NCBI GenBank assembly: GCA_937981955.1
Contig: CALJNA010000031.1
Coordinates: 1 to 64,000, forward strand
Length of the DNA stretch: 64,000 nt
Reading direction: 5' to 3'
DNA from: an uncultured Granulosicoccaceae bacterium
GTDB taxonomy: Bacteria > Pseudomonadota > Gammaproteobacteria > Granulosicoccales > Granulosicoccaceae
The notes under the pieces were generated by a model. The model had not been told where the DNA came from. It saw only the letters and a list, made by a program, of their open reading frames with translations, and searched no databases. The translations under genes were made by a program, and so were the position numbers. Below are positions 10,440 to 12,797 of this stretch, piece after piece; within the stretch, counting starts at the first letter, position 1; the number at the start of each line of letters is the position of its first letter.

Positions 10440-10491
10440 TTATAACTGTCCTTGATAACACGCCGTGTTCTCCACCTTGCGCCACCGAGTG

Positions 10492-11778
10492 ATGCAGATG
10501 CATCGTGCAGTGAAGTGTCGTCATGCTTATCTGTTGTGCATGATGATACTGCTGCAGAGCTGTGCCAGCAGTGGCTCACTCTATGACGCCCGGAGTCAGT
10601 TCTACAGTGGCCAGCCTCAGGCTGCACTCGACACGCTTAACAATGAAAAAGTCTCAAGCCGAAATCAATTGCTGGCTTATCTTGATCACGGACTGATTGC
10701 ACACACAGCGGGCAACTATCAAGAGAGCATTGATGCGTTCAAATCCGCTCGAGAGCTGTTAAATCGCATCGACTTCATTGGCGTTAGAGAACAAGGTGCA
10801 TCGCTAATTACCAACGATTGGGTGATTTCATATAAAGGCGAGTACAGCGAACGGTTGTGGATTCATACCTTTCAAATGATGAACTTTCTGTTGTTGAATC
10901 AATATGAAAGTGCTGCGGTTGAAGCGCGCCAGGCATTGCAAGTCTATGCAGAGCATGGCGATACACTCAAAAACGACTGGTATACCCGTGCGCTGATGGC
11001 AATGAGCTTTGAACAAGCCGGCAAAACCGATAGCGCCCACATTGAATATAAAAAGCTGATAAACGATTCGGGCAGAGATACCGGCATTGCCAGACGTGCC
11101 TGGCAAAATGCGCGACGACTTGGTCGAGAGCAGGATGCCACAAAATTTAAAAACCTGATTAGCACCAGCGCCAGCGTTGGAGACAATAAAGGCGAATTGG
11201 TGTTGTTTCTGCAAACCGGCTCTATTCCAAGAAAGATCGCAGGTGAAATTTATGTCGATCCAGAACTGTTTGCATCGTTTCCGGTGTATCCGGATATTCC
11301 GCGTCCTGATATTCAATTTACTGCAGTGAAGAACGGAGAAACGGTTGCTGCCGATATGGTAACCACACAACTCGTGGATATATCCAGATCAGCGCTGGCC
11401 GCACGCGGTAAAAAAATTGCGCTTAAACAGGCGCTTCGAATTGCAGCCAAAAAAGAGCTTGCACGCGCATTGGAAAAACGCGCAGACGGATTCGGTGGTT
11501 TAATCACCGCCGCCATGCTCATAACCGAACAAGCCGATACACGCAGCTGGGAAACCTTGCCAGCACATATATCGATGGTACAAATTCCGTTACACGAAGG
11601 TACGCACAATATTACCTTACAGGTGCTCGATGGTTCTCGCGTTTTTAATGTCACGGTGTCGAATATCGACATAGGAGCCAACAAGGTCACGTATCGCTCA
11701 CTAAGACTGGGTTCCGGCGCTCCAAGACTTATTTCCAGTGTGGCATCAGAGACGTCAAAGGCTCTGCCAACGCCGTAA
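10492..11778 (+). CDS. COG3014-like lipoprotein with TPR-like helices
   Basis: This is a predicted outer-membrane lipoprotein. From MQMHRAVKCRH a hydrophobic stretch leads to the lipobox LLQSC. The N-terminal half is helical with TPR-like units (ARSQFYSGQPQAALDTL, LIAHTAGNYQESIDAFKSAREL, LLNQYESAAVEARQALQVY). The C-terminal half is beta-rich. Proteins of this kind often sit next to LpoB-family genes, as here, suggesting a joint role in cell-wall synthesis, but their biochemical role is unknown to me. A GTG at 10465 would add nine residues before the signal peptide; neither start has a good SD, and I chose the ATG that gives a standard signal peptide. Confidence 0.72.
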   Translation: MQMHRAVKCRHAYLLCMMILLQSCASSGSLYDARSQFYSGQPQAALDTLNNEKVSSRNQLLAYLDHGLIAHTAGNYQESIDAFKSARELLNRIDFIGVREQGASLITNDWVISYKGEYSERLWIHTFQMMNFLLLNQYESAAVEARQALQVYAEHGDTLKNDWYTRALMAMSFEQAGKTDSAHIEYKKLINDSGRDTGIARRAWQNARRLGREQDATKFKNLISTSASVGDNKGELVLFLQTGSIPRKIAGEIYVDPELFASFPVYPDIPRPDIQFTAVKNGETVAADMVTTQLVDISRSALAARGKKIALKQALRIAAKKELARALEKRADGFGGLITAAMLITEQADTRSWETLPAHISMVQIPLHEGTHNITLQVLDGSRVFNVTVSNIDIGANKVTYRSLRLGSGAPRLISSVASETSKALPTP

Positions 11779-11868
11779 CAGCTTCCAATTCCCTTTGAGA
11801 CTTGAACAAACCCCGTGTTTTCATGCTACGCTCAGTATTCGATTAGCAAACGTAGAGGAGGTGATCAA

Positions 11869-11925
11869 ATGTCTAGTGTTTTGATGACTGGCAGATCAGT
11901 TCTGAGCGGAGCATCTGTAGCGTAA
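11869..11925 (+). CDS. 18-residue micro-ORF with extended Shine-Dalgarno
   Basis: The frame encodes MSSVLMTGRSVLSGASVA. It is preceded by AGGAGGTGATC (11856-11866), an 11-base match to the complement of the 16S rRNA 3' end, with seven bases between AGGAGG and the ATG. The peptide has a loose internal repeat (SSVLMTG, RSVLSG, ASVA). Codons 12-16 form the 3' strand of helix P2 of the surrounding RNA, so translation would open that helix. The stop directly abuts the next hairpin. A leader peptide or a small functional peptide are both possible. Confidence 0.45.
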   Translation: MSSVLMTGRSVLSGASVA

Positions 11926-12012
11926 GCGCCATTGGCATTGCTACCAGTAGCGCAAAAATGCGGCTGCCGGGCTTTAGCTCTATTAGTTGACTGATTGTCA
12001 GCTTGAACACGG

Positions 12013-12035
12013 GGTCGCCGCAAGGCGGCCTTTTT
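12013..12035 (+). terminator. Intrinsic terminator of the structured RNA
   Basis: GGTCGCC (12013-12019), GCAA tetraloop (12020-12023), GGCGGCC (12024-12030) with one G-U pair, then TTTTT (12031-12035). The outermost three bases are shared with RNA helix P1. It lies 43 bp before the VC0807-family start. Confidence 0.85.
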
Positions 12036-12077
12036 CAATTTAAACATAACATCCGACAAACACATCACCGTAGTCCA

Positions 12078-12797
12078 GTGACCGAAGAAGAACCTAAACA
12101 ACGTCCTTTTGTTGACTTGATTGTCAGCATCATTATTCCGTCGATTATCCTGATGAAGTTCAGCGGCGAAGACAACCTGGGTCCGGCTGGCGCACTGGTT
12201 GTTGCTCTGGCTTTTCCTATTGGCTGGGGGCTATACGAACTCATTGGAAACAAGAAGCGTAACTACATAGCGCTGCTGGGTATTATCAGCGTTTTACTTA
12301 CTGGCGGTATTGGCCTGTTAAAAATTGACGCTCAGTGGCTGGCCGTAAAAGAGGCCGCTATCCCGTTAATTATTGGCATTGGTGTTCTGGTTGCAAATAA
12401 AATGGGTTTTCCGATTGTTCGAAAGCTTTTGTTCAATCCAAAACTCATGAATGTCGATCGCATTGAAACAGCGTTAGCACAGAACAACAACAAACCCGAA
12501 TTTGAAAAGAAGCTCGATCGGGCAAACTTGTTTTTTGCCGGGACGTTTCTTTTTTCGGCGGTGATGAACTACGTTCTCGCGAAAGCTATCGTGACCAGCG
12601 AAAGTGGATCACAAGCGTTTAACGAAGAGCTGGGCAAAATGACCTTGCTCAGCTACCCAATGATTGCCATTCCGTCAACGCTAATGATGCTGGCTATCTT
12701 CTACTTCATCTGGCGCACCGTTAATAAACTAACCGGTTTGAAGCTTGAAGAGGTATTGGTGACGGACGAGTCGCCGGATTCAACAGACAAAGATTAA
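12078..12797 (+). CDS. VC0807-family multi-pass membrane protein
   Basis: The protein is an inner-membrane protein of the VC0807 family; its function is not established. From the GTG (VTEEEPKQRPFVDL) there are about six hydrophobic helices: LIVSIIIPSIILMKF, AGALVVALAFPIGWGLYEL, IALLGIISVLLTGGIGLLKI, EAAIPLIIGIGVLVANKM and two near the C-terminus (LFFAGTFLFSAVMNYVL, MIAIPSTLMMLAIFYFIW). LLTGGIGLL, DAQWLAVKEAAIPLIIG and FPIVRKLLFN are typical family phrases. A TTG at 12003 in the same frame is rejected because it lies upstream of the terminator. No strong SD is seen at 12078. Family length is about 240 residues, as here. Confidence 0.75.
   Translation: MTEEEPKQRPFVDLIVSIIIPSIILMKFSGEDNLGPAGALVVALAFPIGWGLYELIGNKKRNYIALLGIISVLLTGGIGLLKIDAQWLAVKEAAIPLIIGIGVLVANKMGFPIVRKLLFNPKLMNVDRIETALAQNNNKPEFEKKLDRANLFFAGTFLFSAVMNYVLAKAIVTSESGSQAFNEELGKMTLLSYPMIAIPSTLMMLAIFYFIWRTVNKLTGLKLEEVLVTDESPDSTDKD

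What the first reader, a model, noticed from the sequence alone, without database searches (positions are those of the whole stretch)
11810..12035. Compact structured RNA that does not match a class I know
Seen: an 11-bp closing helix, a 12-pair helix with one mismatch, two further hairpins and a U-tailed terminator, all packed into about 225 bases between two protein genes. Inference: this is a small RNA or a leader of the VC0807-family gene. Closing helix and terminator share three bases, so they could compete like a switch. tmRNA, 6S, RNase P, SRP RNA and the common riboswitches do not fit.
Basis: partly seen in the sequence, partly recalled or inferred. Interest (0 to 1): 0.72.

Follow-up and report, generated by a model that had tools for sequence, protein, structure and literature searches.

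The report
Conserved small RNA with mini-ORF
The stretch encodes a conserved small RNA gene with its own terminator, carrying a nearly perfect ribosome landing site and a tiny reading frame inside a long stem; relatives, known until now mainly as one Caulobacter small RNA family, turn up in many other Proteobacteria, and how it works is still a guess.

Summary
Its closing helix has its 5' arm upstream of a conserved -10-like box and pairs in 1 of 25 family copies. The likely transcript is about 11840-12035: 16S-complementary Shine-Dalgarno (11856-11866), 18-codon ORF (11869-11925), long-range stems P1 and P2, terminator. P1 pairs in 23 of 25 copies and covaries between families. Flanking genes change, so it is not a leader. 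The frame looks selected: stops at codons 11-31 in 93 of 93 distinct members; counted from codon 6, the other frames behave so in 39 and 36 of 93. The peptide is barely conserved. A model from gammaproteobacterial copies hits 72 genomes of other class(es), 45 above 30 bits where ordinary strong-Shine-Dalgarno genes reach at most 27.4; 27 loci examined are all alike. These match Rfam RF01867 (CC2171, Caulobacter sRNA) up to 68.9 bits; the window copy scores 15.1 against a threshold of 75. Best reading: a divergent CC2171 relative, translated and refolded by ribosomes. Identity well supported; mechanism inferred.

The parts
11824..11832 (+). extended -10-like box TGCTACGCT (TG(C/A)TAnnnT)
   Evidence: in 25 of 25 family copies, 32-35 nt before GGAGG; promoter role inferred, not listed by the generic scan
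11840..12035 (+). predicted small RNA transcript, about 196 nt
   Evidence: start inferred from the -10-like box, end from the terminator; R1, R2, R3 match 11840-12034, 11843-12035, 11853-12031; no RNA-seq available
11856..11866 (+). AGGAGGTGATC, Shine-Dalgarno complementary to the 16S rRNA 3' tail (tail sequence recalled)
   Evidence: the only copy of this 11-mer in the genome assembly; GGAGGTGATC exact in 23 of 25 family copies
11869..11925 (+). 18-codon ORF MSSVLMTGRSVLSGASVA, stop TAA at 11923-11925
   Evidence: frame test
11876..11883 (+). P1 5' arm GUGUUUUG (inside the ORF, codons 3-5)
12003..12010 (+). P1 3' arm UUGAACAC just before the terminator (one mismatch in the window copy)
11888..11900 (+). 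P2 5' arm CUGGCAGAUCAGU (inside the ORF)
   Evidence: energy
11990..12001 (+). P2 3' arm ACUGAUUGUCAG
   Evidence: energy
11986..12002 (+). local hairpin GUUGAC-UGAUU-GUCAGC, alternative to P2
   Evidence: minimum-energy fold of the window transcript; counterpart in A1 90% paired but without covariation beyond shuffles
12011..12035 (+). intrinsic terminator GGGGTCGCCGCAAGGCGGCC + TTTTT
   Evidence: counterpart visible in the alignments

Best explanation
A free-standing small RNA gene, a divergent gammaproteobacterial relative of the Caulobacter sRNA CC2171 (RF01867). SHOWN by comparison: a short leader carries a complement of the 16S rRNA 3' tail (usually 9-14 nt), a start codon 0-4 nt after it opens an ORF of 11-31 codons, the ORF runs through the 5' strands of a covarying long-range rod (P1, P2) whose P1 lies next to the terminator, and an open frame of this length is kept while the peptide is nearly free. 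INFERRED: ribosomes load very efficiently or even stall at the over-long Shine-Dalgarno; a translating ribosome opens P1 and P2 and frees the 3' strand, which in this family can form a local hairpin instead; when initiation is scarce the rod closes. The RNA would thus read translation capacity and, by exposing or hiding its 3' strand or by changing its own stability, pass it on in trans. My belief: identity and architecture about 0.9, ribosome-driven refolding as the functional principle about 0.4.
For: Conservation: DNA search 25 of 57 genomes, own included; R1 32 of 48 family genomes; f92 pattern 27 of 36 genomes, one place each; R3 75 of 398 phylum genomes at E 0.01, 72 of them outside the class, 45 of these above 30 bits, while R3 gives 7.1 to 27.4 bits on 11 ordinary loci with a similar start site; all 30 fetched R3 loci carry SD + (A/G)TGTC and a short ORF. 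Covariation: A2 90.2% of cells paired, 55 double-change cells against 21.3 shuffled, score 0.406 against 0.223, 0 of 500 shuffles; A3 0.455 against 0.228; own P1 partner better than the median partner from other families in 80 of 87. Standalone. ORF; two separate 6-nt insertions keep the frame (L005; L025/L160). Weak peptide constraint: variable sites per codon position 41/41/58 in 18 groups. Two states: in the window transcript the rod and the local-hairpin fold are equal at -69.1 kcal/mol. Relationship: RF01867 matches 16 of 18 loci tried, E 4e-12 to 0.03, and none of 9 ordinary strong-Shine-Dalgarno loci up to E 5.
Against: No expression or translation data. The switch is thermodynamic inference; the local 3' hairpin shows no covariation beyond shuffles (0.212 against 0.197). 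Within A1 the P1 pairs never change on both sides and the count of further pair types is below shuffles (20 against 22.1); P1 double changes appear only between families. The window copy is not strongly structured (z -1.87) and does not significantly match RF01867 (15.1 bits, E 0.25). Pattern searches required the SD and ATGTC, so their conservation among those hits is partly by construction. 16 of 48 family genomes gave no R1 hit, several of them over 90% complete; one of these, G023, holds a diverged copy. Spread in the class is patchy (about 10 member-like hits in 369 genomes). No target or effector is known.
Confidence: 0.5

Rival explanations
1. It is a small mRNA whose product, an 11-31-residue peptide, is the functional molecule; the rod and terminator only protect or tune the message.
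For: The frame is kept in 93 of 93 distinct members; lengths cluster: 18 in 11 of 31 family members and 4 of 4 f140 members, 23 or 26 in 19 of 27 f92 members, 14 in 4 of 6 type-B members; synonymous single changes 49 of 138 against 35.4 expected.
Against: Beyond Met-Ser the peptides differ even within a genus; frame-shifted C-termini in L013/L015 and another frame through P2 in L008/L010/L014; third codon positions only mildly enriched (41/41/58).
Confidence: 0.2
2. It is a ribosome decoy: the 16S-tail complement captures 30S subunits, a translational counterpart of 6S RNA, and the ORF lets captured ribosomes leave.
For: The 16S complement is the most constant part while most else diverges; AGGAGGTGATC occurs once in the window's genome and 1-4 times in 11 others, 33 places in all against 5 for the reversed control.
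Against: A decoy needs neither an ORF of controlled length nor a covarying rod; RNA abundance unknown; usually one gene per genome. In some genomes with the RNA (G099, for example) the 11-mer copies are elsewhere and the RNA has a slightly shorter match.
Confidence: 0.13
3. It is an ordinary base-pairing sRNA acting on mRNAs or other sRNAs through an exposed loop or its 3' strand; the Shine-Dalgarno only stabilises the RNA.
For: Size, own terminator; RF01867 is filed as an sRNA.
Against: The ORF frame looks selected; the apical part varies most in length and sequence.
Confidence: 0.12
4. It is a leader or attenuator of the downstream VC0807-like gene.
For: The gene follows on the same strand in most core-family loci.
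Against: Convergent or unrelated next genes in other loci, with the RNA kept.
Confidence: 0.03

Closest known systems
CC2171 sRNA of Caulobacter (Rfam RF01867)
   Same: Full-length alignments: CAAC leader, GAAAGGAGGUGAUCC, (A/G)UGUCUCAU, closing stem, terminator; loci of other class(es) found with our model score up to 68.9 bits, ordinary strong-Shine-Dalgarno loci none.
   Different: Window copy 15.1 bits against gathering 75; stem and ORF sequences replaced; the inner stems of the Rfam consensus align poorly to the window copy, with many non-standard pairs. The line Rfam prints says only 'caulobacter sRNA' and names no ORF.
Dual-function sRNAs with short ORFs (SgrS recalled; Spot 42 and rnTrpL/peTrpL named in passages of PMC10117765)
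   Same: Small regulatory-type transcript with a short ORF.
   Different: Here the peptide is nearly unconstrained and the Shine-Dalgarno is the most constant part.
6S RNA (recalled)
   Same: A conserved RNA that may imitate an ideal substrate of a core machine.
   Different: Would address ribosomes, not RNA polymerase; different structure and sequence.
Leader-peptide attenuators such as trpL (recalled)
   Same: Short ORF whose translation could choose between two folds, followed by a terminator.
   Different: No constant downstream gene; the terminator shares no arm with P1 or P2.

Membership tests
RF01867 CC2171 | score at or above Rfam's gathering threshold (75 bits) | tested here: not met
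   window 15.1 bits, E 0.25; best of 18 other loci 68.9; gathering scan of 20 loci: none
RF01867 CC2171 | homology through intermediates | tested here: met
   R3, built from 22 gamma sequences, finds loci in other class(es); 13 of 14 of these tried match RF01867, as do L229, L204, L200 (E 1e-4 to 2e-3) but not L304; 0 of 9 control loci match
RF01867 CC2171 | GAAAGGAGGUGAUCC(A)(A/G)UGUCU core and closing stem before a terminator | tested here: met
   aligned; core AGAGGAGGUGAUCAAAUGUCU in the window, with small differences
RF01867 CC2171 | detected as a discrete transcript | not testable with these tools
   no RNA-seq; Landt et al. 2008 not held
leader of the VC0807-like gene | constant position upstream of the gene, same strand | tested here: not met
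tRNA / tmRNA | ARAGORN hit | tested here: not met
   0 genes in the window
6S, RNase P, SRP RNA, common riboswitches | Rfam gathering score | tested here: not met
   0 matches in 64 kb
isrK / isrD (Hfq-binding sRNAs) | Rfam gathering score | tested here: not met
   25.9 of 50 and 15.2 of 37 bits, the terminator aligning best
dual-function sRNA | ORF is translated | not testable with these tools
   only the frame statistics
dual-function sRNA | peptide sequence under selection | tested here: inconclusive
   41/41/58 variable sites by codon position; 49 synonymous against 35.4 expected of 138, pairs not independent

The most novel reading that the evidence does not exclude
A Proteobacteria-wide RNA that senses or titrates the ribosome itself: it offers a near-perfect copy of the 16S-tail complement and a peptide-agnostic mini-ORF, and its fold, hence its regulatory output, reports how readily 30S subunits start translation; in effect a 6S RNA for the ribosome.
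Probability: 0.22. Interest if true: 0.92.

Novelty: new variant of a known kind. Interest (0 to 1): 0.72.

Why it matters
An RNA kept, usually once per genome, in at least several families of Gammaproteobacteria and in many genomes of other class(es) of the phylum is represented in Rfam only by a Caulobacter sRNA. Recognising the family, its 16S complement and its kept but peptide-agnostic reading frame turns it into a testable question: do these bacteria have a dedicated RNA that reads or buffers ribosome availability? Homologues should exist in tractable laboratory alphaproteobacteria such as Caulobacter.

Tried and rejected
Rejected: closing helix and 12-pair helix as RNA structure; VC0807 leader; isrK/isrD similarity; minus-strand RNA (similar fold energy, but the box, SD, ORF and U-tail read on the plus strand). 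Mobile origin: no plasmid match at blastn level; 10 viral contigs hold the SD-ATGTCTAG pattern but the four best-scoring lead into ORFs of 70-300 codons and the other six are internal or 4-codon frames, so none was taken as a member. These gave a useful warning: R2 scores up to 28.4 bits (E 6.5e-7) and R3 up to 27.4 bits on such ordinary genes. So R2/R3 hits below about 30 bits prove little by themselves.

Pattern hits judged ordinary or unconvincing: L168, L175, L240, L241, L243, L294, L298, L299, L300, L301, L303, L305, L306, L307, L310, L311, L312, L313. Of the 14 genomes, ten look like members, L235 and L237 do not, and L238, L239 are the start of an hfq-like gene (name recalled). The marginal R1 hit in G067 and the 45 R3 genomes whose loci were not fetched were not examined; 27 of those 45 score 30 bits or less.

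Limits: type B (f53, f65, f111) rests on architecture only; its R3 scores, 20.7-28.5, overlap the ordinary controls, so it may be a separate RNA. In f140, f65, f53 and f111 members were picked partly because the ORF is short, which helps the frame count (10 of 93); f1, f92 and the 27 R3 loci were taken without that filter. The 11-31 codon range was read off the data. A1, A2, A3 and A4 use 20, 26, 26 and 22 chosen sequences. The script misplaced the terminator in a few members (L001, L161, L229, L322); the single f161 member failed that test. Relatedness within families remains in all covariation counts. Searches covered the same 48 genomes.

Literature: nine of ten searches used, listings seen; passages read in PMC8545117, PMC6234868, PMC5082802, PMC8959179, PMC12559287, PMC3927594, PMC10117765, PMC13009471. 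No paper in the library holds both CC2171 and Caulobacter. One search returned 16S-primer papers among its listed 20 of 95. No claim is made that the family is absent from print beyond these.

Full report
WHERE. The window is contig C31 of an unnamed assembly, G000 (4.34 Mb, 76.7% complete). The closest named loci by the VC0807-like protein are uncultured Granulosicoccaceae and Granulosicoccus. The stretch lies between an ORF of 437 codons (10465-11778, no Pfam match), which follows an LpoB gene (PF13036), and the VC0807-like ORF (12003-12797, no Pfam match); a trypsin/PDZ protease gene follows on the minus strand.

OBSERVATION. A DNA search found the region in 25 of 57 genomes, own included, all in the same family. 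Their 25 copies keep, with few exceptions, a TG(C/A)TAnnnT box (25 of 25), then 32-35 nt later GGAGGTGATC (exact in 23 of 25), ATGTC(T/G)AGTGTTTT (6 nt inserted in L005 and L025), a GGCTGA..TCAGCC-like segment, CACGG (CACAG in L025) and a terminator.

STRUCTURE. In A1 (20 of the 25 copies; L004, L005, L006, L020, L025 left out) P1 is 97.9% and the P2 helices 82.1% and 90.0% paired, with 18 double-change cells against 5.5 in shuffles; those lie in P2, while P1 varies on one side only, and further pair types are not above shuffles. A local 3' hairpin that excludes P2 is 90% paired, without covariation beyond shuffles. Most single copies fold into a long rod closed by P1 beside the terminator (L009 z -3.46; L200 z -6.90). 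In the window copy the rod and the local-hairpin fold have equal energy, -69.1 kcal/mol; its z is only -1.87.

INDEPENDENCE. In the family the RNA often sits between the same two genes, but in L116, L118, L123 and L126 the next gene is convergent, and in L119, L124, L125, L127, L129, L130, L131 and L132 flanks differ on one or both sides. In 30 further loci (other families and four diverged copies) neighbours are scattered; the widest set of its own, F15, is near 5 of 30. It is its own gene, not a leader.

SPREAD. R1 hits 32 of 48 family genomes. The pattern GGAGGTGATC-ATGTCTAG over 369 class genomes hit 6: three in the family, two in another family, f92, one ordinary gene. In f92, 27 of 36 genomes have one place each, most with P1 changed from GUGUUUUG/CAAGRCAC to GUGAGAU/AUCUCAC. 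R2 hit 14 of 369 class genomes: f161 (77.6 bits) and f140 (44.6) clearly, type-B families f53, f65, f111 only at 21-28 bits; two or more of the rest are ordinary genes. A looser pattern gave 14 of 369, 11 member-like and 3 ordinary genes. Family scans: f65, 5 of 24 genomes, 3 of 6 places member-like; f140, 13 of 108 genomes, 4 of 14 places. R3, from 22 gamma sequences without type B, hit 75 of 398 phylum genomes at E 0.01: 3 in the class, 72 outside it, one place each except G590 with two. As a control R3 gave 7.1-27.4 bits on 11 ordinary loci with a similar start site. Of the 72, 45 exceed 30 bits; 27 loci were fetched and all 27 carry SD, (A/G)TGTC and a short ORF; the 27 genomes at 30 bits or less may include ordinary genes.

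COVARIATION BETWEEN FAMILIES. A2 (18 f92 and 8 f1 sequences): 90.2% of cells paired, 12 of 20 pairs with double changes, score 0.406 against 0.223 shuffled and at most 0.157 slid. A3 (26 sequences with f140, f161 and type B): 82.4%, 0.455 against 0.228 shuffled and at most 0.197 slid. Without any alignment, own P1 arms pair at -11.1 against -7.5 kcal/mol with arms of other families; own beats the foreign median in 80 of 87 members.

READING FRAME. Of 96 members 93 are distinct over 90 nt. In all 93 the frame from the (A/G)TG stops at codons 11-31 (sd 4.3), against 23 and 7 of 93 in the other frames; as the conserved TCTAG puts a stop into frame 2, the fairer count starts at codon 6: 93 against 39 and 36 of 93. 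Four members start with GTG (the gamma patterns required ATG). Stops are TAA 48, TGA 26, TAG 19. Two separate 6-nt insertions preserve the frame. The peptide is barely conserved: 41/41/58 variable sites by codon position in 18 groups; 49 synonymous single-change codons of 138 against 35.4 expected, pairs not independent. Translation appears to matter more than the product.

RIBOSOME SITE. AGGAGGTGATC, complement of the 16S 3' tail (recalled), occurs once in the G000 assembly, in this RNA; over 12 genomes 33 places against 5 for the reversed control. In f92 and most of the non-class loci the match runs on to GGAGGTGATCC. Extended pairing can alter initiation (an S. aureus study, PMC13009471, passages read).

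WHAT IS KNOWN. Rfam gathering: nothing in the window nor in 20 relatives. At relaxed threshold RF01867, caulobacter sRNA CC2171, matches full length in 16 of 18 loci, 68.9 bits (E 4e-12) down to 28.8; L326 and L304 did not match. None of 9 ordinary strong-Shine-Dalgarno loci matched it, so the site alone does not explain the match. The window copy gives 15.1 bits, E 0.25. It is a distant relative through intermediates, not a member by the curated threshold. No library paper holds both CC2171 and Caulobacter; the discovery paper is not held.

MECHANISM (inference). Efficient loading at the 16S complement, translation through the 5' strands of the rod, release of the 3' strand, re-closure when initiation is scarce. 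What the strand acts on is unknown; peptide, decoy and plain-sRNA readings remain open.

VERDICT. New variant of a known but little-known family; interest 0.72.

Noticed in passing
G012:C8:8026-8040 and G012:C19:17173-17187: One genome of the genus has two places with GGAGGTGATCATGTC; a second copy of the RNA is possible.
   Followed up: no
L295, L296, L297, L251, L249, L250: Type-B loci carry a CAGGGG...CCCTG hairpin just upstream of the Shine-Dalgarno; four of six have a 14-codon ORF, three of these of the form MS..CI.G..GG.C. It may be a separate conserved mini-gene.
   Followed up: partly
L317-L343: Many of the non-class members share CAAC some 10 nt upstream of the Shine-Dalgarno and a small hairpin with a CAG(C/T) loop near the end of the ORF.
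   Followed up: partly
L020 (G032): Between CACGG and the U-run this copy has a much longer insert than the others, apparently a longer stem.
   Followed up: no
L161, L162, L176, L198: Four genomes of 6.7-7.8 Mb in the genus carry a strongly diverged copy (MSRVIT... ORF, 24 codons) in other surroundings.
   Followed up: partly
window 10465-11778 and 12003-12797: Neither flanking protein has a Pfam match at E 0.001.
   Followed up: no
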